A stretch of 64,000 nucleotides of DNA from Yersinia vastinensis (GTDB taxonomy: Bacteria > Pseudomonadota > Gammaproteobacteria > Enterobacterales > Enterobacteriaceae): NCBI RefSeq assembly GCF_902726565.1, contig NZ_CACVAF010000001.1:1-64000 (forward strand), in the 5' to 3' direction. The translations under genes and the position numbers were made by a program. The stretch's first letter is position 1, and each line of letters begins with the position of its first letter. Shown in pieces: positions 43,672 through 63,242 of the stretch. The notes beneath the pieces are model-generated. The model was not told where the DNA came from and searched no databases. It was given only the letters and a program-made list of their open reading frames with translations.

Positions 43672-43912
43672 TTATTTTGTTTTCTTGCGGGAGTGATCAC
43701 AGGCTGAAAGTTTAGTCAGGACAATTGTCGAGAAAACGTATTTTTTCCCGAATCAGCTTGCTAGGATGCTAGCCGATACGATTTGGTATCACATTTTCAT
43801 CCCTGCCAGAGGTGAAAATAGCCGTATAAACGGCAATGTCATCTAAGTGAATATGCCTCTGACAGAATACTCTGCTATACCCCTACATGTGCATCAAAGA
43901 AAGCGTTAAAAC

Positions 43913-43943
43913 AAAAGGCTCCTTATCGGAGCCTTTTGTTTTT
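43913..43943 (-). terminator. Terminator between pspG and qor
   Basis: AAAAGGCTCC/GGAGCCTTTT with a 5-nt loop forms a symmetric 10-bp stem with A and T runs on both sides. It can terminate qor on the minus strand and pspG on the plus strand. The space 43672-43912 shows no gene. Confidence 0.85.
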
Positions 43944-53514: not shown

Positions 53515-53607
53515 TTCTAGCACCGAGGAAAAGTGTCTTGTATTAATTGGTGATTTTTCACATATAGTGTACCTTGTAATTGTGTAATGTTTATGAGGTG
53601 TGGGTGC

Positions 53608-54855
53608 ATGGAAAAGAACTACAGAGTTACAACATTTGTCATGGATAGTGGCGAGCGCTATTGCATGGTAGTGGATCGTGCTTCTGGCCTTCCCATGTAT
53701 TACCCAACTTTGTTTTTAACAACCCAAATCCGCAATAAAGGCAATGCCTTCTCAACGACGCTAGCTGCTGCTAACAACCTAGTCTTGTTGTTACGCTTTC
53801 TAGAGAGTCGTGACATTAACCTTGAACAGCGGTTTTTGACCAAGGATTTCTTCAAGCCACATGAGCTGGACGATCTGCGAGATTTTGCTCAGCGCAAGCA
53901 AGGCAGGATGCCATCAAAAGCGCTCTCCAACCCTTGGCTGGATGATGAGTTGACCAATATCGTGGATAACGGAACACAACACTCCCGCTTAACAACGTTT
54001 GCCAACTATTTACGCTGGTATGCGATGCATATCTTAAAAATGCCTGAGCTGGACGTTGTTGAACAGATCAATGCAATGGCGGAGCAGATAAAGACGCGCC
54101 GACCGTCTAAACAGGGCAGAAACGGTGATTTGCAAGATAAGTCATTGAGTGATGTTCAATTGGATGCGTTATTTGAACTCATGCAGCCTGGATCAGCGTC
54201 AAACCCTTTTTCAATAGATGTCCAGCGTCGTAATCGGCTGATGATCTTGCTTCTGTTTTATCTTGGTATTCGAGGTGGCGAATTGTTAAACATCAGAATA
54301 CAGGATATCGACTTTAGCACTAACAGGATCCATATCGTGAGGCGAGCAGATGAACGAGCTGACTCGAGAACTAATGAGCCTAATGCTAAAACTCGAGAGC
54401 GGCTATTACCGTTGGCTGAGTCCTTAGTTCAAGAACTGCATGGTTATATCACCCAAGATCGTCGTAATGTCCGAAATGCGAAGAAAAATGACTACCTGTT
54501 TGTGACTTACAAGCGTGGGCCAACTGTGGGAAACCCTATCTCCAAGGCGGGGTATCATAAAATATTTTCCGTGGTCAGAGCCGTCTCGCCGCAATTGTAT
54601 GCTGCATCAGGACACTCGCTCCGTCACACTTGGAATCGCAAGTTTTCAGAGCGAATGGATGCCATGGATGAGCAAGTCAGCGAGGAACGCCAAGAGCAAG
54701 TCCGCTCGTACTTAATGGGCTGGAGGGAGGGTTCAGGAACCGCAGCGACTTACAACAAGCGTTTCATTCAGCAAAAAGGGTTTGAGGCCGCTTTGGCATT
54801 ACAAAAAGCTAACGGTACTCGCTTGCCTGAGGACTTGAAGAATGATGACGAATAA
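53608..54855 (+). CDS. Tyrosine recombinase 1 (TnpA-like)
   Basis: A phage-integrase-fold site-specific recombinase of 415 aa. The catalytic domain is at about 185-395 with Arg222 (YLGIRGGELLN), box II HSLRH with His336 and Arg339, and nucleophile Tyr382 (AATYNKRF). The N-terminal part is a SAM-like core-binding domain. The ATG at 53608 is chosen because GAGG stands before it; an ATG at 53587 has no ribosome site. It is the first of four overlapping genes: its stop overlaps the start of recombinase 2 by 14 nt. The set resembles Tn554-type tnpA-tnpB-tnpC. Confidence 0.88.
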   Translation: MEKNYRVTTFVMDSGERYCMVVDRASGLPMYYPTLFLTTQIRNKGNAFSTTLAAANNLVLLLRFLESRDINLEQRFLTKDFFKPHELDDLRDFAQRKQGRMPSKALSNPWLDDELTNIVDNGTQHSRLTTFANYLRWYAMHILKMPELDVVEQINAMAEQIKTRRPSKQGRNGDLQDKSLSDVQLDALFELMQPGSASNPFSIDVQRRNRLMILLLFYLGIRGGELLNIRIQDIDFSTNRIHIVRRADERADSRTNEPNAKTRERLLPLAESLVQELHGYITQDRRNVRNAKKNDYLFVTYKRGPTVGNPISKAGYHKIFSVVRAVSPQLYAASGHSLRHTWNRKFSERMDAMDEQVSEERQEQVRSYLMGWREGSGTAATYNKRFIQQKGFEAALALQKANGTRLPEDLKNDDE

Positions 54856-56404
54856 CATCTTACCAGCATTAGTTCCCGAGCGAATCCCAGCAAGGGCGAA
54901 CGGATACTATTTTATGCTGCATGATCAAAAATGGCGGTTAGATAAAAACACCACTATTCCGGTTGGATTGCTACATGGGCTTCTGGAATCAGAGTCTCTG
55001 AAGGGGGCTCTTTATACACTGTCATTCTATGCAAGGAACATGTCTGCTGGTCACACGCATAGTATTTTCTGGTGTTTCTTAGCAATGGTTCGAGCAACTA
55101 AAGCTACTTGCATCGACGATATCATGTTGATTGGCTACAGGTCTTCTTTGGATGCGGCTCATGAATATCGGTTAGGTGTTGTTAGCACCTTCCTGCGACA
55201 GTGGCACAGGCTGGGCTATCCCGGTGTTAGCAATAACGTGGCGTGTTTGCTGGAGGGATGGAGGTTAAAGGGGGGGCGTAAGGGGGATGCGGTTAAGCGC
55301 ATGGATCCTCAAGATGGGCCTCTGACGGATAATGAGCTGACAGCGTTCAACGAGGGAGCTGTTCGGGCCTATGAAAAGAGCTTAATTACCATAGCTGAGT
55401 TGGCCATGGCTCTTGGTACCAGTCATACGGGGCGTCGCTCCATCCAGATCTCACAGCTTCGTGTGGTCGATGTCCTCTGTGGTAAAAATGAAAGGGGAGA
55501 GCCCTTCTATATGTTGAATGTGCCCCGAGCCAAGCAGCGCAGTGGCTCTTTCCGAACAAAATTCAAGCCCTACGCGATGACACAGGATCTATGGGCAATC
55601 CTGAGCGCTCAGGCAAGGAATGCGGTTACTCTGGTTGAGAATAGTCTAGGGTTTGAATTGCCGGAGGCTGATCGGCAGCAGATCCCTCTGTTTCCTGATC
55701 TTGATGTGCTAGCTGCCGTCCAATCCCCTTATGAATTTCGCCAACTTCTTGCTACCGACAAACTTCATATCGCCTCTTCAGAGATCACTGTTACGCTCCA
55801 GTTCATCGTCGCAGCATCTGATATCCGCTCGGAACGTACTGGTGATCTATTGCATATCAGTTCTCGCCGCTTTCGTTATACCACGGGTACTCGGGCTGCA
55901 CGCGAAGGGTTTGGCGAGTTGGTAATAGCGGAACTGCTTGACCATTCGGACACCCAAAACGCAGGTGTTTATATCAAGAATATCCCCGAACATGTGAAAA
56001 AGCTGGATGAGGCGGTTGGATTTCAATTGGCGCCATACGCTCAAGCATTTGTCGGGGTGCTTGTAGATTCAGAGAGGGATGCGCATCGAGGTGACGACCC
56101 TACCAGCCGTATTCGGACCGAAATGGGCCAGGGTGTTGGCACTTGTGGCGAGTATGGCTTTTGTGGTGCCAATGTTCCTATTCCTTGTTATACCTGCATG
56201 CACTTCCAGCCTTGGTTGAATGGCCCACATGAAGATGTCTATCAGGGCCTGCTTAATGAGCGTGAACGGCTGAAAGAGATAACTGGTGATATCCAGATTG
56301 CTGCTGTACTCGATCGTAGCATCATCGCGGTGGCAGACGTGCTCATGCGTTGTGCATCACGTTGTGAAGAGCTTAGCCAACAGAGATTAATTACCAATGG
56401 CTGA
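54842..56404 (+). CDS. Tyrosine recombinase 2
   Basis: A 520-aa member of the phage-integrase superfamily. The first Arg is at 198/199 (HTGRRSIQIS) and the nucleophile is probably Tyr377 (AGVYIKN). Box II reads RRFRYT at about 342-347, so an Arg stands where most relatives have His. After the catalytic domain comes a Cys-rich tail (GTCGEYGFCG...CYTC at about 435-455), also seen in recombinase 3, that may bind zinc. Both ends overlap the neighbouring genes, so translation is probably coupled. Confidence 0.82.
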   Translation: MMTNNILPALVPERIPARANGYYFMLHDQKWRLDKNTTIPVGLLHGLLESESLKGALYTLSFYARNMSAGHTHSIFWCFLAMVRATKATCIDDIMLIGYRSSLDAAHEYRLGVVSTFLRQWHRLGYPGVSNNVACLLEGWRLKGGRKGDAVKRMDPQDGPLTDNELTAFNEGAVRAYEKSLITIAELAMALGTSHTGRRSIQISQLRVVDVLCGKNERGEPFYMLNVPRAKQRSGSFRTKFKPYAMTQDLWAILSAQARNAVTLVENSLGFELPEADRQQIPLFPDLDVLAAVQSPYEFRQLLATDKLHIASSEITVTLQFIVAASDIRSERTGDLLHISSRRFRYTTGTRAAREGFGELVIAELLDHSDTQNAGVYIKNIPEHVKKLDEAVGFQLAPYAQAFVGVLVDSERDAHRGDDPTSRIRTEMGQGVGTCGEYGFCGANVPIPCYTCMHFQPWLNGPHEDVYQGLLNERERLKEITGDIQIAAVLDRSIIAVADVLMRCASRCEELSQQRLITNG

Positions 56405-58430
56405 GATTTTCAAGTTCAAGTCAAAGTCTATGCTGACAGCCGCCGAAAACCTTGGAGCATTCATAGCCAAGTGCCGAGATCAACTGACTGTATTCGGAAC
56501 TGAACTCAATTGGGATGATCCGGTGTGGCCAAACATAACTGTGTTTGCCAAGTTGGGCGTTACTACTCGCAAACCAAAACCCCAAGAGGTGCAAGCTCCA
56601 GAGTTCATCGGTTTCGCTAAAGCTTATTTCCGTTACCAGCAGGGGCATCGTCCCACGGGGACAAAGAATGAAAGTAAGGCCCTCCGAGCGGTTGAGGCGT
56701 CTTTGCTTCAAGTAAACGGAAACGCAAATATTGATGGCCTGTCAATTACTGTGCTTGATGAAGCAGCTGAATTGGCAAGGCAGCACTACTCAGATAGCTC
56801 AGCATATCATTGCGGCCGAGAGATTGAGCGGCTGGCTAAGTTTGTAGTTGAAAACCAGCTTGTATCAAACGCTGTACAAGATTGGGTTAATCCAATTAAG
56901 CGTGCTGAGGACAAGAACAAAACAGGCAGGGAGGCGAAGAAAAATAGGGAAGAGAAACTTCCAAGTGATATTGCCCTCAATGCGTTGGCAGAAATTTTTG
57001 CCAACGACCCAATTCATGAACGAGATATATTTACAACATCGGTATTTGCCATGTTGATGTCAGCGCCGTCACGCATTAGTGAGATGTTCGCTCTACCTGT
57101 GGATTGCGAGGTATTTGAAACTGATCGTGAAGGTATAGAGCGCTATGGTTGGCGTTTTTTTGCGGGGAAAGGCTATGAGGGTGATATCAAATGGATACCC
57201 ACCGTCATGGTCAGCATCGCTAAAACAGCCGTAGCTCGAGTTAGTGTGCTCTCTGAAAATGCTCGACAACTGGCCAAGTGGATTGAGAAACACCCGGATA
57301 AATTTTACCGCCATGCTAACTGCCCTGATGTTGCTGATGATGTGCCGTTGACGATGGAGCAGACCTGCATGGCGCTCGGCTTTGCACATAACACCCCAAA
57401 GACGTGCAGGTCGTGTCTTAATAGTAGAGGTTTAGCCTCAGAAGATGGTGTGCATACGCTAAATAGCCTGTGGCAGCATACTATGGCGCGTTTGCCCGAT
57501 GACTTTCCGTGGTTTGATAAAGACAAAGGGATTAAGTACAACGATGCCTTGTTTGCACTGAATGCAAATCAGCTCCACGGGAACCGAGGATGTATACCGG
57601 TTGAATTGCATAAGCCAACCAATAATTTCTTCAACAATGATTTGTCACCTCGTGAAACACTGGAAGGAAAACACAGCAGTATCTTTGATCGTCATGGTTA
57701 CCGCGCAGAAAACGGAGAACGGGTCAAATTGACCTCGCATCAGGCTCGGCATCTGCTCAACACCATTGCCCAGCACGGCGGCCTGTCAAACCTGGAAATT
57801 GCTAAGTGGTCGGGGCGGGCAGATGTGAAACAGAATCGAACTTACAACCACATGACCGAATACGAGCTGGTTGGTATGGCTGAACGCCTCGATCCCACAA
57901 AAGCGCTATTTGGGCCTGTTGGCGAGGTGGCAAAGCATCTGCCCGTGACTATGCAGGAGTTCAATACCTTAGAACATGCTGCAGTCCATGTGACGGAGTA
58001 TGGCTACTGTGTGCATGATTACACCATGAGTCCTTGTGAGAAGTTCCGAGATTGCGTCAATTGTACCGAACAGGTTTGCATCAAAGGCGATGATACTGAA
58101 AAGTTGGATCGCATTAAGAAACGTCTGGAGAAGTCGGAGCGACTGTGTTTGCTTGCTGACGCAGCGGTGGAAAGCGGCGAGATAGGAACTGATCGCTGGT
58201 ATCAGTACCACAAGAAAACTGTTACCCGGCTTCGTGAGCTAGTGGCTATTTTAGAGAATCCAGAGATTGAAAATGGTGACCAGATTAAGCTCCGGGGCAA
58301 TGATTTCAGCCAGCTTCGCCGTGTTGTCGCAAAGAAGTCTATTGAGGCCATTGAGCAAAAAGGCAAAGAAAGTGAAGAAGCTGTGATGTTAGATGATTTG
58401 ACAACTTTATTAGGGGGTGGCCTTGGCTAA
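56397..58430 (+). CDS. Tyrosine recombinase 3 (TnpB-like)
   Basis: A 677-aa recombinase, about the size of Tn554 TnpB (around 630). Catalytic residues: Arg226 (APSRISEMF), box II HQARH with His448 and Arg451, and Tyr483 (NRTYNHM). A Cys-rich C-terminal part (YGYCVHDYTMSPCEKFRDC, CTEQVC, about 540-565) is followed by a long helical tail. It overlaps recombinase 2 by 8 nt and the next small gene by 14 nt. Confidence 0.85.
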   Translation: MAEIFKFKSKSMLTAAENLGAFIAKCRDQLTVFGTELNWDDPVWPNITVFAKLGVTTRKPKPQEVQAPEFIGFAKAYFRYQQGHRPTGTKNESKALRAVEASLLQVNGNANIDGLSITVLDEAAELARQHYSDSSAYHCGREIERLAKFVVENQLVSNAVQDWVNPIKRAEDKNKTGREAKKNREEKLPSDIALNALAEIFANDPIHERDIFTTSVFAMLMSAPSRISEMFALPVDCEVFETDREGIERYGWRFFAGKGYEGDIKWIPTVMVSIAKTAVARVSVLSENARQLAKWIEKHPDKFYRHANCPDVADDVPLTMEQTCMALGFAHNTPKTCRSCLNSRGLASEDGVHTLNSLWQHTMARLPDDFPWFDKDKGIKYNDALFALNANQLHGNRGCIPVELHKPTNNFFNNDLSPRETLEGKHSSIFDRHGYRAENGERVKLTSHQARHLLNTIAQHGGLSNLEIAKWSGRADVKQNRTYNHMTEYELVGMAERLDPTKALFGPVGEVAKHLPVTMQEFNTLEHAAVHVTEYGYCVHDYTMSPCEKFRDCVNCTEQVCIKGDDTEKLDRIKKRLEKSERLCLLADAAVESGEIGTDRWYQYHKKTVTRLRELVAILENPEIENGDQIKLRGNDFSQLRRVVAKKSIEAIEQKGKESEEAVMLDDLTTLLGGGLG

Positions 58431-58842
58431 GCATCTTGACAATAGAGATATTAACGCCATCGTGAATCTAATTCGGGGATGGCAGGAACCAAAACTGTCC
58501 TGGTCAGCAATCTGTGAGGCGGCAGAACCATTGGTCGGAAAGTTGCCGTCAAGACAGTCCCTCAGTGCACATGACGCAATAGTGACTGCCTATCAAACAA
58601 AGAAAGAGGCGCTTAAAGGCCGTGGCCCCAAAAATCCGCGTCCAGCTAGTTTGAACATTGCAGCCGCTAGGATTGTGAATCTTGAGAGCGAAATCGAAGA
58701 GCTGAAGGAAGAGAACCGGATGTACAAACAACTGTTTGTGATCTGGCAATACAATGCATACAAACATGGAATGAAGGAACATCAACTTAATGCGCAGTTG
58801 ACAAAGATTGACCGAGAGCGTTCTGACGGTGAAAAACGATAA
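58417..58842 (+). CDS. Small coiled-coil protein, TnpC-like
   Basis: A 141-aa hydrophilic protein starting at GTG inside the end of recombinase 3. Residues about 80-110 (NLESEIEELKEENRMYKQL) form a clear coiled coil; the first half is helical with a Ser/Arg-rich turn. Size, position and coiled coil agree with TnpC of Tn554 (about 125 aa), an accessory that affects transposition efficiency and orientation. Homology is inferred from layout rather than a recognised motif. Confidence 0.6.
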   Translation: MALAKHLDNRDINAIVNLIRGWQEPKLSWSAICEAAEPLVGKLPSRQSLSAHDAIVTAYQTKKEALKGRGPKNPRPASLNIAAARIVNLESEIEELKEENRMYKQLFVIWQYNAYKHGMKEHQLNAQLTKIDRERSDGEKR

Positions 58843-58893: not shown

Positions 58894-60243
58894 ATGATTG
58901 ACCAGTCTTTTTCAGCGAGAAATTTTAGAAGGATATACGACCTAGATAGAAAAAATAAAGGTACTTTAGAAGTTGAATACTTTCCTGATGCTTATAAAAT
59001 TAGGAAGAAAATAATAATGTTAAAAGGTTTTATTTATTGGCTTGCAAGAAGGCTGAGAAATGATAAGATTAGTACGACTAAATTTGAAGAAAGGAAAAAT
59101 ATAATTAATGAACATATTAAGATTAGAAAGGAACAATATAATAATGAAGTGAATAGCAAGTTGAAAATTATTGCACAGAATGTCGGTGTAAAAGGGTACA
59201 CTTTACCTTTGACGTTATTACCACATCAAGTGAAGAATAAGAATGTATATTCAATTGGTAATACAGTTGAAGCATTATTTGTGTCTAGGCAAATAAAATT
59301 TATTTTAAGTTCGTTATACACAATAAAATCAAATAATAGGGATCTGATTATCAGTCGCCTAAGCGCCCTGATTAAGGAAGTTAGTCCAAAATATATAATC
59401 AGGGCCGATGTTGAAAGTTTTTATGAATCCATAAACCATAAGTCTTTATTAGATATGTTGCATTCATCACCTAAGTTATCTGTTCCGCCACGTCGAGTGA
59501 TTACTCAGTTAATTAGGGAATACCAGGGTTTAACTGGGCTAGATAAAGGGGTGCCTCGTGGTGTAGGCATAAGCTCTTATTTATCTGAGTTGTATATGAG
59601 TGTTGTAGATGATAAAATAAGGGCTTTGCCAGATGTTACTTATTACGAACGATTTGTAGATGATTTAATAGTGATCTTCTCACCAGATAAAGGGAGGAAT
59701 ACTTGTGGCTACCTCCCTCAAATCACTAAAATTATAAATGACCGAGCCCTGTCTCTTAATAATAAAACAGAAGAGTTGGATTTATTTACACAATCTAATA
59801 AAAATTTTGAATATCTAGGCTATAAATTTCAGATAACAGCTAGAGATTACAGTATAAAGATGAGTTCTAATAAGGTTAAAAAAATTAGAAGTCGAATTGA
59901 TAAAGCATTTGATGAATACAATCAGAGTGTTAGTAAAACACCAAAGAGAGCAGAAAAAAATATTTTGCTTAGAATGAAATTTCTCACCGGAAACACCCGT
60001 CTTTATAATAGTAAATCAAAAGCATTTGTTGGGATATATTTTAGCAATCGATTTATAACTGATTTATCTGATTTAAATGGATTGGATTCTTATTTGGTGA
60101 GTAAAATAAATGGTTTGCAAGACCAGAAACTTAAAAAAAGAATTAGTAGGTTTTCCTTTAGTAAAGGTTTTGAAGATAAAATTTTTAGAAAATTTAGTTT
60201 CATAGAATTTAGCGATATATCTAAGGGATGGTCACATGTCTAA
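58894..60243 (+). CDS. drt3a: Reverse transcriptase, Drt3a-like (DRT type 3, UG3)
   Basis: A 449-aa reverse transcriptase and the first gene of what I take to be a DRT3 anti-phage system. RT motifs: A RADVESFYESI with Asp172; B GVPRGVGISSYLSELY at about 219-234; C RFVDDLIVIF with Asp256 and Asp257; E FEYLGYKF. No maturase, endonuclease or other fused domain follows; the tail is about 130 basic residues. Start: ATG 7 nt after a perfect AAGGAG; the in-frame TTG at 58888 is rejected. It overlaps the second RT by 8 nt (ATGTCTAA). The gene is visibly AT-rich compared with the recombinases before it. From published work as I recall it, this RT copies an ACACAC tract of a companion RNA into poly(GT). 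Confidence 0.82.
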   Translation: MIDQSFSARNFRRIYDLDRKNKGTLEVEYFPDAYKIRKKIIMLKGFIYWLARRLRNDKISTTKFEERKNIINEHIKIRKEQYNNEVNSKLKIIAQNVGVKGYTLPLTLLPHQVKNKNVYSIGNTVEALFVSRQIKFILSSLYTIKSNNRDLIISRLSALIKEVSPKYIIRADVESFYESINHKSLLDMLHSSPKLSVPPRRVITQLIREYQGLTGLDKGVPRGVGISSYLSELYMSVVDDKIRALPDVTYYERFVDDLIVIFSPDKGRNTCGYLPQITKIINDRALSLNNKTEELDLFTQSNKNFEYLGYKFQITARDYSIKMSSNKVKKIRSRIDKAFDEYNQSVSKTPKRAEKNILLRMKFLTGNTRLYNSKSKAFVGIYFSNRFITDLSDLNGLDSYLVSKINGLQDQKLKKRISRFSFSKGFEDKIFRKFSFIEFSDISKGWSHV

Positions 60244-62278
60244 AAAAGCGTTATCGATAAATTTCCCAATAGAGAGAGTAGTTCTTTCAGATTTTTTACC
60301 ATATGAAGTTCCTATTACTTTTTCAAATAGACATTTTTACAATTTTATTGTTAAGCATCAAATAAAACATGATGGGTTGAATTTTATATGGTTAAAGAAA
60401 GATGACTGTTTAAATAGTTTGATTTTAATTTTATTGGGTCTTGAGCAGAATACAGAAATAGTTGAAATTCTTGATGATGGTATTAGTTATACTAAAACAA
60501 ATATCAAGTATTCTAAACTACCTAGCATTGCTTTTACTTTTCCAATTTCACATAAACATAAAGAATACAGATACTTGTCTCTAATGCATCCTAAAGGACA
60601 GTTATTAGGCGTTGATTTCTATAGAAATTATAAAGATTTAATAACATACTATTCAAATGTTAGTCCATTTAGCCTCAGATCAGCAAAAAGGACCGCTGGT
60701 TGTACTTACATCGAGTCAAAGTCTCTTATTGAAAGTTTTGAGAAAGAAGATTTAAGTATTGAGGTTGAAGGTCAGGATTATGAAAATTTAAAATCTTTTT
60801 TCGTTTATAAGAAATATCGTAATATTTTTGAATTTTATGAATCTGAAGATCATCATTGGTGTGAAAAGCGTTTTAATTTCCTCTCTAAATTAGATGTGTC
60901 GAACTGTTTTGATTCAATATACACCCATTCAATTTCATGGGCTGTTTTGCAAAAAAATTACGCAAAACAACAGTTGAGTAAGACACAATCGACATTCCCA
61001 TTTAAATTTGATCAATTGATGCAGAGGTCGAACTACAACGAGACAAATGGAATAATAATTGGGCCAGAATTATCCAGGATTTTTGCAGAGATAATAATGC
61101 AGTCAGTGGATAACAATATTATCAATGATCTTAATATAGATGGTTTAGTTCTTGGTGGGGATTACCAAGTATATCGCTATGTCGATGACTATTTCATTTT
61201 TTATAATGATGATGATGTTTTCAATAAAATTAGAATAAGTACGCAGAAAAATCTAAAAACCTTCAAGCTAAGTTTGAATAAATATAAAGAAGAGAGGTTT
61301 TCTCGTCCAATAATAACGCCAATAACTATAGCCAAGAAAAAAATAGCGAATTTGATATCAGAAAGAATATCTTATAACATTACTGACAATGGTTCTCTAG
61401 AGGAAGATATTAAGAAAGGGAATGTCTACATACATCAAAATAGTTTATCTACCGACTTTAAATCTATACTTTCTGTATCAGGTATAACATATTCGGATAT
61501 CTTAAACTATTCATTGTCTATCATTGAAAGAAAAATAAAGGCACTTTTTAAAGATTATAAAGAGCTTTCAAAAGATGAAAGTGGCGAGCATCAACTAATT
61601 AATGCTATTGTATCGGTGGTGAATTTCACATATTTTATATATGCAGTTGCTCCTAAAGTGAATAGCACTATAAAATTATGCAGGATAATTCAGCAAGTAA
61701 TTATGTTTGTCAAAGATCAAAAAATAGGCGAGGAATATCAACATATTGTATTCAAATGTGTATTCGATAATTCATGTTCTATTTTAGATAAATACTCCAT
61801 TGATAAAACAACACCGATAGAAACTTTATATTTGTTAGTGCTCATTAGGCAACTTGGTAAATATTATTGGTTAGGTGAAAAAAGTTTGATGAAGTATTTC
61901 AATATTAGATTTGAAGGTGGTGTCTACTCATTTGATGATAATCTGAATTACTTTTCCATTACTTCTCTAATTTTTTATATGAGTGACAAAAAAAGATATG
62001 ATGGAATCAGGAAGCATCTTTTGCTTCATGTCGAAAATATTTATAGCATGAAAGTTGACACCCTTCTAAATGAGTCTGAATTGGTTCACTTAACGTTGGA
62101 TTTAATTGCTTGCCCATACATATCTGTTTCTTTTAAAAAATCCCTGCTTTCTCGGTATGATATTGAAAAATCGGATGTGAAACGAATTATTTCATTAAAT
62201 AAATATTGGTTTACAAAATGGAATGACTTTGATTTTGCAAAGGAGCTGGACGCGAAACTTAGCAATGCAGTATACTGA
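60236..62278 (+). CDS. drt3b: Reverse transcriptase, Drt3b-like (DRT type 3, UG8)
   Basis: A 680-aa reverse transcriptase, longer than most. RT motifs: A SKLDVSNCFDSIYTHSISWA with Asp220; B NGIIIGPELSRIFAE near 272; C YRYVDDYFIFY with Asp317 and Asp318. About 330 residues of helical sequence follow the palm and match no domain I know. The start overlaps drt3a by 8 nt, so the two proteins are probably made in fixed ratio. Pairing of a roughly 450-aa and a roughly 650-700-aa RT is the hallmark of DRT3. The partner RT is reported, as I recall, to make the complementary poly(AC) strand without a nucleic acid template. The promoter for the downstream RNA lies inside its last codons. Confidence 0.82.
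   Translation: MSKKALSINFPIERVVLSDFLPYEVPITFSNRHFYNFIVKHQIKHDGLNFIWLKKDDCLNSLILILLGLEQNTEIVEILDDGISYTKTNIKYSKLPSIAFTFPISHKHKEYRYLSLMHPKGQLLGVDFYRNYKDLITYYSNVSPFSLRSAKRTAGCTYIESKSLIESFEKEDLSIEVEGQDYENLKSFFVYKKYRNIFEFYESEDHHWCEKRFNFLSKLDVSNCFDSIYTHSISWAVLQKNYAKQQLSKTQSTFPFKFDQLMQRSNYNETNGIIIGPELSRIFAEIIMQSVDNNIINDLNIDGLVLGGDYQVYRYVDDYFIFYNDDDVFNKIRISTQKNLKTFKLSLNKYKEERFSRPIITPITIAKKKIANLISERISYNITDNGSLEEDIKKGNVYIHQNSLSTDFKSILSVSGITYSDILNYSLSIIERKIKALFKDYKELSKDESGEHQLINAIVSVVNFTYFIYAVAPKVNSTIKLCRIIQQVIMFVKDQKIGEEYQHIVFKCVFDNSCSILDKYSIDKTTPIETLYLLVLIRQLGKYYWLGEKSLMKYFNIRFEGGVYSFDDNLNYFSITSLIFYMSDKKRYDGIRKHLLLHVENIYSMKVDTLLNESELVHLTLDLIACPYISVSFKKSLLSRYDIEKSDVKRIISLNKYWFTKWNDFDFAKELDAKLSNAVY
62247..62276 (+). 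promoter_or_regulatory. Sigma-70 promoter of the putative DRT3 ncRNA
   Basis: TGGACG (62247-62252) and TATACT (62271-62276) are 18 nt apart, 4 of 6 and 5 of 6 consensus matches. It lies within the last 32 nt of the second RT gene. Transcription would begin near 62282-62284, right at the outer arm of the predicted RNA structure. Confidence 0.6.
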
Positions 62279-62280
62279 GA

Positions 62281-62465
62281 GGAAGCGCATCAGGCACCCT
62301 TAATGGCTGTTGGCAGCCGCACACACCAGCGCTAACAGGTATGATTGCCCTATGCATGGGAATTATACTTGGCAAGATTCGTCTGAGTCTTTCCTTTGAG
62401 GTAGCCCCCTACTACACAGCTTTTGGCCTATGTAGTAGGGGGTTGTCGAGCCTAGAGTGCCTTAG
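62281..62465 (+). ncRNA. Putative DRT3 template ncRNA
   Basis: No reading frame, but rich pairing. AGCGC (62284-62288) can pair with GCGCT (62329-62333). Between them lies a perfect hairpin, GGCTG-TTGG-CAGCC (62305-62318), and directly after it the unpaired ACACAC at 62321-62326. A second perfect 12-bp hairpin is CCCCCTACTACA/TGTAGTAGGGGG (62405-62442). AGGCAC (62292-62297) and GTGCCT (62457-62462) could close the whole fold. A promoter fits a start near 62283. DRT3 systems encode an RNA whose AC repeat serves as template for one RT. The 3' end is inferred; no T-run terminator is seen. Confidence 0.65.
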
Positions 62466-62489: not shown

Positions 62490-62890
<401 letters not shown>

Positions 62891-62994
62891 GCTCAAGAGG
62901 GATCCTATATGACTTTTAGTCCAGTGATTCAGCTCACTGCTACACTTGCAGGATTATCGAAACTCTGTATGCGGATACCCATGAGGGGGCTATA

Positions 62995-63242
62995 ATGGTT
63001 CTTATTATTGAAAAATGGAGGAGCAGCCCGGTGGTTAGAGTCCCGGAGCGGAGTTTGGTATGAAAAAATTTGGCTTAGGTGCAAATGATGTTATTGATAT
63101 TAAAGACCAATATGGTTTCATCATCATTGGCCATACGGAACTGAAAATATATTCCTTGGATACTCTCTTGAAGGGAATTTCCGCAGTTAATCTTCACCAA
63201 AAAATTAGCTTCGGTTTACCAACAGGTAAAGAGCAGCTCTGA
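62995..63242 (+). pseudogene. MazE/PemI-type antitoxin, frameshifted, toxin missing
   Basis: The first frame from 62995 reads MVLIIEKWRSSPVVRVPERS, a MazE-type swapped-hairpin DNA-binding start. It is broken near 63058; the adjacent frame goes on with FGLGANDVIDIKDQYGFIII, then GISAVNLHQKISFGLPTGKE, the toxin-binding tail of MazE proteins. Joined, it is a normal-size antitoxin of about 80 aa. One insertion or deletion explains the break. No mazF follows; instead IS debris starts. A 60-aa frame from 63060 survives but lacks the DNA-binding strand. Confidence 0.65.

What the first reader, a model, noticed from the sequence alone, without database searches (positions are those of the whole stretch)
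62281..62465. Undescribed ncRNA with an exposed ACACAC template next to a perfect hairpin
The AC tract at 62321-62326 follows GGCTG-TTGG-CAGCC by two bases and sits inside a larger stem AGCGC/GCGCT. It is the only such structured element near the RT pair. An AC-repeat template would yield GT-repeat DNA, which is the product I recall for DRT3. The 12-bp hairpin at 62405-62442 may be the RT handle.
Basis: partly seen in the sequence, partly recalled or inferred. Interest (0 to 1): 0.92.

Follow-up and report, generated by a model that had tools for sequence, protein, structure and literature searches.

The report
Pseudoknotted template RNA of DRT3 immunity

Summary
The interval lies just 3' of intact drt3a and drt3b genes and is the template ncRNA of a DRT3 anti-phage system. 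That an ACACAC RNA templates poly(dTdG) is published for E. coli DRT3, so the mechanism is not new; this copy is a deep variant. An ACACAC/CACACA tract lies within 300 nt 3' of drt3b in 112 of 112 loci and 7 of 8 later ones; the eighth has CACAC. Window-type RNAs share a closing stem, a hairpin 5' of the template, a 3' hairpin and a pseudoknot, all with two-sided pair changes. The two DRT3s found in the PDB have another RNA layout and lie outside the window's protein clade. The end of drt3b resembles a sigma-70 promoter: TATAYT overlaps Val-Tyr-stop, where Tyr is the primer-type residue. Its Val codon is GTA in 67 of 71 genes (15.4 expected), and 68 of 81 loci also have a -35-like box at 18 nt. 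Promoter function and product are inferred, not measured.

The parts
58894..60243 (+). drt3a: RNA-templated reverse transcriptase, intact, FVDD at residue 254
   Evidence: PADLOC Drt3a 1.4e-108; NCBIfam NF041747 360.6 bits, cut-off 200; FVDD
60236..62278 (+). drt3b: protein-templated reverse transcriptase, intact, YVDD at 315; gate residues E24, R112, R281; C-terminal primer-type Tyr680
   Evidence: PADLOC 5e-193; NF041748 699.7 bits, cut-off 350; residues placed by the alignment to 26cz and counted; Tyr column shared with L107 and L115
62247..62252 (+). -35-like box TGGACG inside drt3b codons
   Evidence: promoter scan; Asp codon GAC in 62 of 65 genes against 85 of 307 internal Leu-Asp pairs
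62271..62276 (+). -10-like box TATACT overlapping GTA-TAC-T(GA), the codons of Val679, primer-type Tyr680 and the stop
   Evidence: TATAYT in 73 of 81 window-type loci; Val codon GTA 67 of 71 against 27 of 128 internal Val-Tyr pairs
62284..62394 (+). conserved core of the DRT3 ncRNA, window type; predicted transcript start about 62283-62284
   Evidence: covariance model R1: 79.8 bits, E 2e-14 (the window row is itself in the model); 6 of 111 columns vary among 8 close sequences, against 15.8% of drt3b columns in 7 of them
62284..62288 (+). P1 closing stem, 5' strand (pairs with 62329-62333)
   Evidence: 3 of 5 pairs with two-sided changes, 97.6% of cells paired
62290..62295 (+). pseudoknot 5' strand UCAGGC (pairs with 62381-62386)
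   Evidence: 97.5% of cells paired in A2; 92.0% in A3, 6 of 6 pairs with two-sided changes (46 of 47 A3 rows are not in A2)
62305..62318 (+). P2 hairpin GGCUG-UUGG-CAGCC just 5' of the template, in the place of a template boundary element
   Evidence: 99.4% of cells paired, 4 of 5 pairs with two-sided changes
62320..62326 (+). template tract CACACAC (ACACAC at 62321-62326)
   Evidence: 112 of 112 loci carry an AC tract of 6-11 nt 3' of drt3b
62329..62333 (+). P1 closing stem, 3' strand
62336..62371 (+). P3 hairpin
   Evidence: minimum-energy fold of the window; covariation not tested
62372..62393 (+). P4 hairpin (one C-U mismatch in the window); its loop holds the pseudoknot 3' strand 62381-62386
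   Evidence: 92.0% of cells paired, 7 of 7 pairs with two-sided changes
62405..62442 (+). terminal 12-bp hairpin, seen in close relatives only
   Evidence: the 8 close sequences
53587..58842 (+). three large recombinase-type genes in tandem (53587-54855, 54842-56404, 56397-58430) and a small tnpC-like gene (58417-58842; the name is recalled), probable carrier element
   Evidence: Phage_integrase 7.7e-15 and integrase_1 NF041502 649.5 bits for the first two; no family hit for the last two; the same gene row beside drt3 in E. coli L018-L020

Best explanation
The interval encodes the template ncRNA of a type 3 defence-associated reverse transcriptase (DRT3) system. Drt3a should copy the CACACAC tract (62320-62326) repeatedly into poly(dTdG), stopping at the P2 hairpin and sliding back in two-base steps, while Drt3b, primed on its C-terminal tyrosine, makes poly(dCdA) under control of its own side chains (E24, R281, R112). 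The strands anneal, and the duplex acts in abortive phage defence. These steps are shown by others for E. coli DRT3 (the stop at the hairpin is their hypothesis with supporting data) and inferred here from homology. In this clade the RNA has a separate architecture: P1 closes a loop that holds a pseudoknot strand, P2 and the template; P3 and P4 follow, and the P4 loop pairs back to the 5' strand. The RNA appears to start at P1 from its own promoter, whose -35 and -10 boxes lie inside the last codons of drt3b, so that the -10 box contains the codon of the primer-type tyrosine. The pseudoknot is supported by covariation; promoter function is inferred from codon choice and spacing.
For: Gene identity. 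Published mechanism: PMC13174585. Template: 112 of 112 loci. Structure: 171 two-sided cells against 46.3 in shuffles, 96.3% of cells paired; on A3, with 46 of 47 rows not used to make the model, 224 against 57.2 and 93.9%. The pseudoknot, which the model did not contain, is 97.5% and 92.0% paired. R1 gave 47 matches in 93 sources, 39 at E 0.01 or less and 8 between 0.011 and 0.96, each on the + strand just 3' of drt3b. Of 7 later loci (L135, L166, L169-L173) it found the 2 window-type ones, and it found one site in the own genome. Residues: R281, Y315, D317, D318 in 112 of 112; E24 position E 104, D 7, gap 1; R112 position R 110, N 1, gap 1; Y680 column Y 111, A 1; a Tyr within the last four residues in 112 of 112. 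Promoter: GTA 67 of 71 against 15.4 expected; redundancy-reduced 55 of 59 against 12.1, z 14.2, and GAC 50 of 53 against 19.9, z 8.8; both boxes, always at 18 nt, in 68 of 81 loci; P1 begins 7-10 nt after the -10 box in 34 of 34.
Against: No transcript, cDNA or phage assay exists here. One intact Drt3b with the other RNA layout or none (L003) has no 6-nt AC tract in 450 nt, only CACAC after a hairpin. The minimum-energy fold of the window core prefers a longer 5'-3' helix over P1. Other codons also deviate: Ser-5 z 7.6, Ser-32 6.4, Leu-10 4.9, Ala-37 4.4, Lys-7 4.1, Leu-14 4.0, so relatedness inflates z. 13 of 81 loci fail at least one box. The -35 score alone separates the groups poorly: 4 of 6 or better at 18 nt in 72 of 81 window-type and 15 of 31 other loci. 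7 of 31 other loci have a 5-of-6 -10-like hexamer somewhere in the 18 nt at the stop. The window's own pair matches 9 of 12, and 6 promoter-like sites were found in 801 nt against 2.7 (sd 1.9) in shuffles.
Confidence: 0.85

Rival explanations
1. The conserved 3' end of drt3b is not a promoter: the ncRNA is cut out of the operon mRNA, and GTATAY is kept as a processing site or as part of the RNA.
For: Genes and RNA lie on one strand and abut; codons outside the two boxes deviate too; the -35 score alone is a poor separator.
Against: The two strongest codon deviations among the last 40 fall in the -10 and -35 boxes, 18 nt apart, and P1 begins 7-8 nt after the -10 box in 30 of 34. Among 31 loci without an R1 match, both boxes occur at the stop in 2, L055 and L057, which lie inside the window's protein clade.
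Confidence: 0.22
2. An ordinary DRT3 ncRNA of the published family; the difference of layout is only alignment noise.
For: Same template, same place 3' of drt3b. 15 of 30 loci outside R1 show a free template, an enclosing helix and a 5' hairpin against 14% of 600 controls (10 of the 30 lie inside the window clade).
Against: R1 finds neither L107 nor L115, which carry the solved-structure types, nor L164, a near copy of L107. The template starts 25-75 nt after the stop in 81 R1 loci and 102-262 nt in the 20 rows outside the clade. All 74 R1 rows of the tree lie in one branch of 84 rows, SH-aLRT 100. The published model itself could not be run.
Confidence: 0.12
3. The AC tract is a chance repeat and the RNA is a terminator or trailer without RT function.
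For: P4 is followed by T-rich sequence in several loci (seen in the sequences printed; not counted).
Against: 112 of 112 loci with a tract against 5.3% of random stretches; compensatory stems; published template mutants lose defence and poly(dTdG) (PMC13174585).
Confidence: 0.02

Closest known systems
EcoDRT3 of Wang et al. 2026 (PMC13174585; 26cz by its tag and residue numbering, near-identical to locus L107)
   Same: Two adjacent RT genes, ncRNA 3' of drt3b, ACACAC template after a stem-loop, E/R/R gate residues, C-terminal Tyr
   Different: Drt3b of L107 is 31% identical to the window's (best segment); template 129 nt after the stop, inside a predicted 10-bp closing stem that spans about 133 nt; Drt3b ends AYE, not VY; R1 does not match
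DRT3 of the 9z6y/9z6z structures (close to locus L115; presumably Deng et al. 2026, which could not be read)
   Same: Same gene pair; AC template 3' of drt3b, 124 nt after the stop in L115
   Different: Drt3b of L115 29% identical to the window's; no R1 match; outside the window clade
DRT10 ncRNA (PMC12632851, passages)
   Same: Short template directly 3' of a stem-loop that is proposed to set its 5' boundary; repeat addition by re-alignment
   Different: Different RT: RT_UG17 scores 1.5e-33 against Drt3a 1.4e-108; template loop poorly conserved; SLATT partner
DRT2 ncRNA (PMC12039810, abstract in the listing)
   Same: A pseudoknotted ncRNA next to a defence RT
   Different: Product is a repetitive gene, another RT family; structures not compared here
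Telomerase RNA template/pseudoknot domain
   Same: Template, boundary element and pseudoknot together (passage in PMC12632851; otherwise recalled)
   Different: No sequence or evolutionary link tested; resemblance of layout only

Membership tests
DRT3 | adjacent drt3a and drt3b genes | tested here: met
   both over curated cut-offs; the genes overlap by 8 nt
DRT3 | intact RT catalytic motifs in both | tested here: met
   FVDD 254 and YVDD 315
DRT3 | Drt3b gate residues (EcoDRT3 E22, R71, R241) and primer Tyr666 | tested here: met
   E24, R112, R281, Y680 by alignment
DRT3 | ncRNA 3' of drt3b with an ACACAC template in a loop | tested here: met
   transcription itself not testable
DRT3 | ncRNA fold of the published covariance model (EcoDRT3 subgroup) | not testable with these tools
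   the published model is not held; in the reverse test our window-type model does not match L107 or L115, which suggests distinct folds
DRT3 | poly(dTdG)/poly(dCdA) product, RecBCD-linked abortive defence | not testable with these tools
   needs cDNA sequencing and phage assays
DRT10 / UG17 | UG17 reverse transcriptase | tested here: not met
   RT_UG17 1.5e-33 against Drt3a 1.4e-108
DRT10 / UG17 | SLATT gene beside the RT | tested here: inconclusive
   no SLATT hit among the six window proteins scanned; small neighbours not scanned
telomerase RNA | homology to telomerase RNA | not tested
   no Rfam family reached its gathering score in the interval; layout only

The most novel reading that the evidence does not exclude
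A large branch of DRT3 (mostly Pseudomonadota and Bacteroidota by record titles, with single records from three other phyla) uses a telomerase-RNA-like core - template, boundary hairpin and pseudoknot in about 111 nt - transcribed on its own from a promoter written into the last codons of drt3b, so that a single codon serves both as the protein primer of one DNA strand and as part of the -10 box for the RNA that templates the other strand.
Probability: 0.65. Interest if true: 0.65.

Novelty: new variant of a known kind. Interest (0 to 1): 0.55.

Why it matters
If right, the DRT3 RNA comes in at least two scaffolds that keep one nearly invariant template, which shows what the RNA must provide (template, 5' hairpin) and what can change (the scaffold that serves Drt3a and Drt3b). 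A promoter inside the codons of the primer end would show how RNA and protein are made from overlapping DNA, and one synonymous change tests it. The constancy of the AC tract fits the view that the product sequence is fixed by Drt3b, whose specificity lies in its side chains.

Tried and rejected
Tried and set aside: (1) the 12-bp hairpin as RT handle: seen in close relatives only. (2) Search for non-AC templates paired with changed gate residues: none found; the 7 E-to-D variants of 112 keep AC tracts, and the one locus without a 6-nt tract (L003) has CACAC after a hairpin and keeps the conserved LPYEVP and GPEFSR stretches (read by eye). (3) MAFFT alignment of 81 downstream regions with RNAalifold gave only one helix; a trimmed set of 34, chosen by me for diversity and alignability, worked. 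(4) A structural test of the other RNA layout was weak (15 of 30 against 14% of controls), and no model of it was built. (5) viral contigs with the single protein found nothing; the alignment query gave 32 loci, of which L101-L124 were entered and L125-L132, partial matches, only. (6) R1 in 369 genomes of the class, with the stricter filters used for large sets, found only the window; the protein family search of the same set found 41 genomes, of which only the window and G397 (L135) had near-full Drt3b matches; L135 has an AC tract 144 nt after the stop and no R1 match. (7) Drt3b over cut-off: 2 of 398 genomes of the phylum sample and 9 of 392 of the family sample, window included. (8) Rfam: no hit in the interval. 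(9) No structure prediction was run, since solved relatives cover both proteins.

Rows dropped before counts: of 118 loci entered, 6 were left out of the 112 (L003, read there on the wrong strand and examined later; L111, L120, L121, L122 and L124, frames under 470 residues). L010 (drt3b annotated in two pieces) was not in the 112 but matched R1. L083 (E 0.96) was counted as not R1. The 81 R1 loci are 34 of the model, 44 found by it (7 of them at E above 0.01) and L002, L018 and L020, assigned first as near copies and found by R1 afterwards. drop 7 near copies (74 left, 71 ending in Val-Tyr). L174 and L175 end before the region; L167 and L168 repeat the window and L002.

Full report
WHAT IS THERE. 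The interval starts three bases after the stop codon of drt3b (60236-62278), which overlaps drt3a (58894-60243). Both proteins are over the curated cut-offs of NCBIfam, and Drt3a and Drt3b are their best PADLOC hits. Both catalytic motifs are intact.

KNOWN MECHANISM. Wang et al. 2026 (PMC13174585; I read the abstract, two of three parts of the Results, the Discussion and passages) show for E. coli DRT3 that an ncRNA 3' of drt3b carries ACACAC, that Drt3a copies it into poly(dTdG), that Drt3b makes poly(dCdA) with E22, R241 and R71 as gates and Y666 as primer, and that DRT3 is toxic without RecBCD. Their covariance model was started from relatives of EcoDRT3. A review (PMC13314766: abstract, passages and one part of a section) and a comment (PMC13213688: passages) report the same from Deng et al. 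2026, which was not held.

COMPARATIVE SET. Loci came from related genomes, plasmids, E. coli genomes, genome contigs (80 kept of 464 relatives) and viral contigs (32). Of 118 entered, 112 had a usable drt3b frame (the dropped ones are named under Tried and rejected). All 112 carry an ACACAC/CACACA tract within 300 nt 3' of the stop, against 267 of 5046 random 300-nt stretches in the same loci and 10.6% of shuffles. Of 8 further complete frames, 7 have one (L135, L166, L169-L173; L169 is 98% identical to the window). L003 has only CACAC, directly after a hairpin. The gate residues are conserved: R281 in 112 of 112, E24 as E in 104 and D in 7, R112 as R in 110 and N in one; the gap in each belongs to L039, whose frame is cut by the contig end.

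THE RNA OF THIS CLADE. An alignment of 34 cores gives P1, P2, P4 and a pseudoknot between the strand after P1 (62290-62295) and the P4 loop (62381-62386). Of 782 cells 96.3% pair and 171 show two-sided changes against 46.3 in shuffles; sliding the partners drops pairing to 33-45%. A covariance model without the pseudoknot (R1) gave 47 matches in 93 sources, 39 of them at E 0.01 or less; the window is the one source that was also in the alignment. On these rows the pseudoknot, which the model did not contain, is 92.0% paired with two-sided changes in all 6 pairs. I found the pseudoknot by eye on the first alignment, so the fresh rows are the fairer test. Sequences are related, so shuffle counts are not probabilities. 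In the window P4 has one C-U mismatch, and the energy model prefers another helix to P1, so the fold of this one copy is inferred from its relatives. Among 8 close sequences 6 of 111 core columns vary, while 15.8% of drt3b columns vary among 7 of them.

TWO LAYOUTS. R1 does not match L107 (whose Drt3b aligns over its full 667 residues with 26cz), L164 (an E. coli near copy of L107) or L115 (close to 9z6y). In L107 and L115 the template lies 129 and 124 nt after the stop. The template starts 25-75 nt after the stop (median 41) in the 81 R1 loci and 102-262 nt in the 20 tree rows outside the clade. In a quick tree of 104 Drt3b rows, 84 form one branch with SH-aLRT 100 and a long stem. All 74 R1 rows and 10 without an R1 match are in it; L107 and L115 are outside. 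Several end branches are long, and the program warns about joins outside this branch. The 10 inside without a match (template at 31-131 nt) include Bacteroidota and two Orbaceae copies and may be diverged forms.

A PROMOTER IN THE LAST CODONS. A promoter-like pair TGGACG-18-TATACT lies at 62247-62276, one of 6 such sites in 801 nt (2.7 in shuffles). In the clade most Drt3b end Val-Tyr-stop (71 of 74). The Val codon is GTA in 67 of 71 genes, where the genes' own usage predicts 15.4 and internal Val-Tyr pairs use GTA in 27 of 128. The Asp codon of the -35 box is GAC in 62 of 65, against 85 of 307 internal Leu-Asp pairs. In 59 redundancy-reduced genes these are the two strongest deviations among the last 40 codons (z 14.2 and 8.8); others also deviate (Ser-5 7.6, Ser-32 6.4, Leu-10 4.9). 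TATAYT occurs in 73 of 81 loci, and both boxes, always 18 nt apart, in 68 of 81, against 2 of 31 other loci; those 2 (L055, L057) lie inside the clade. The -35 score alone separates poorly (72 of 81 against 15 of 31). P1 begins 7-10 nt after the -10 box in 34 of 34, where transcription would start. The Tyr in this box aligns with the C-terminal Tyr of L107, Y666 in EcoDRT3 numbering. I found no mention of such a promoter or of a DRT3 pseudoknot in the listings of searches or in passages of PMC13174585; Deng et al. could not be checked. A pseudoknotted ncRNA is known in DRT2 (abstract of PMC12039810 in the listing).

THE 12-BP HAIRPIN. It is shared by the 8 close sequences. Among 81 loci a perfect stem of 10 or more pairs in that place occurs in the window, L021, L088, L085 and L053, in the last three with other sequences; imperfect stems were not counted. 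It may be a 3' end of this subgroup.

CONTEXT. The genes sit 3' of ssb beside a trio of recombinase-type genes and a small tnpC-like gene. E. coli L019 and L020 carry the same row between ssb and yjcB; L018 and L020 have Hachiman beside it. Within the flanks held, mostly about 2 kb upstream of drt3a, parts of the trio or the small gene were found only in close relatives. R1 finds one site in the own genome.

VERDICT. A real DRT3 ncRNA by homology and conservation. The kind is known. The pseudoknotted layout is well supported by covariation; the embedded promoter is strongly suggested and cheap to test.

Noticed in passing
L165:2820-8558 (about 64820-70558 in window numbering, past the window end): Possible defence island 3' of DRT3: PfkB/nucleoside deoxyribosyltransferase, QueC-like, Ogg-HhH glycosylase, D12 adenine methyltransferase, and an anti-phage dGTPase (NF041026, 560 bits).
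   Followed up: partly
window 53587-58842; L018, L019, L020: Trio of recombinase-type genes plus a small gene beside DRT3, placed 3' of ssb in the window and in two E. coli loci, with Hachiman in two of three E. coli loci.
   Followed up: partly
window about 62490-63040: Sequence 3' of the ncRNA differs from the E. coli loci and is shared with L021; it looks like a decayed insertion-sequence remnant (impression from reading only).
   Followed up: no
L003 (reverse strand), 3' of drt3b: A complete Drt3b frame whose downstream hairpin is followed by only CACAC; possibly a shortened or decaying template.
   Followed up: partly
L055, L057: Schmidhempelia and Gilliamella copies lie in the window clade and have both promoter boxes but no R1 match, and have the shortest full tract, CACACA.
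   Followed up: no
window 43794-43914: Rfam match to Ysr100, a Yersinia sRNA (106 bits), hinting at the host group.
   Followed up: no
L010 6001-8044: Plasmid copy in E. coli with drt3b annotated as two pieces, yet the ncRNA found by R1; described only.
   Followed up: no
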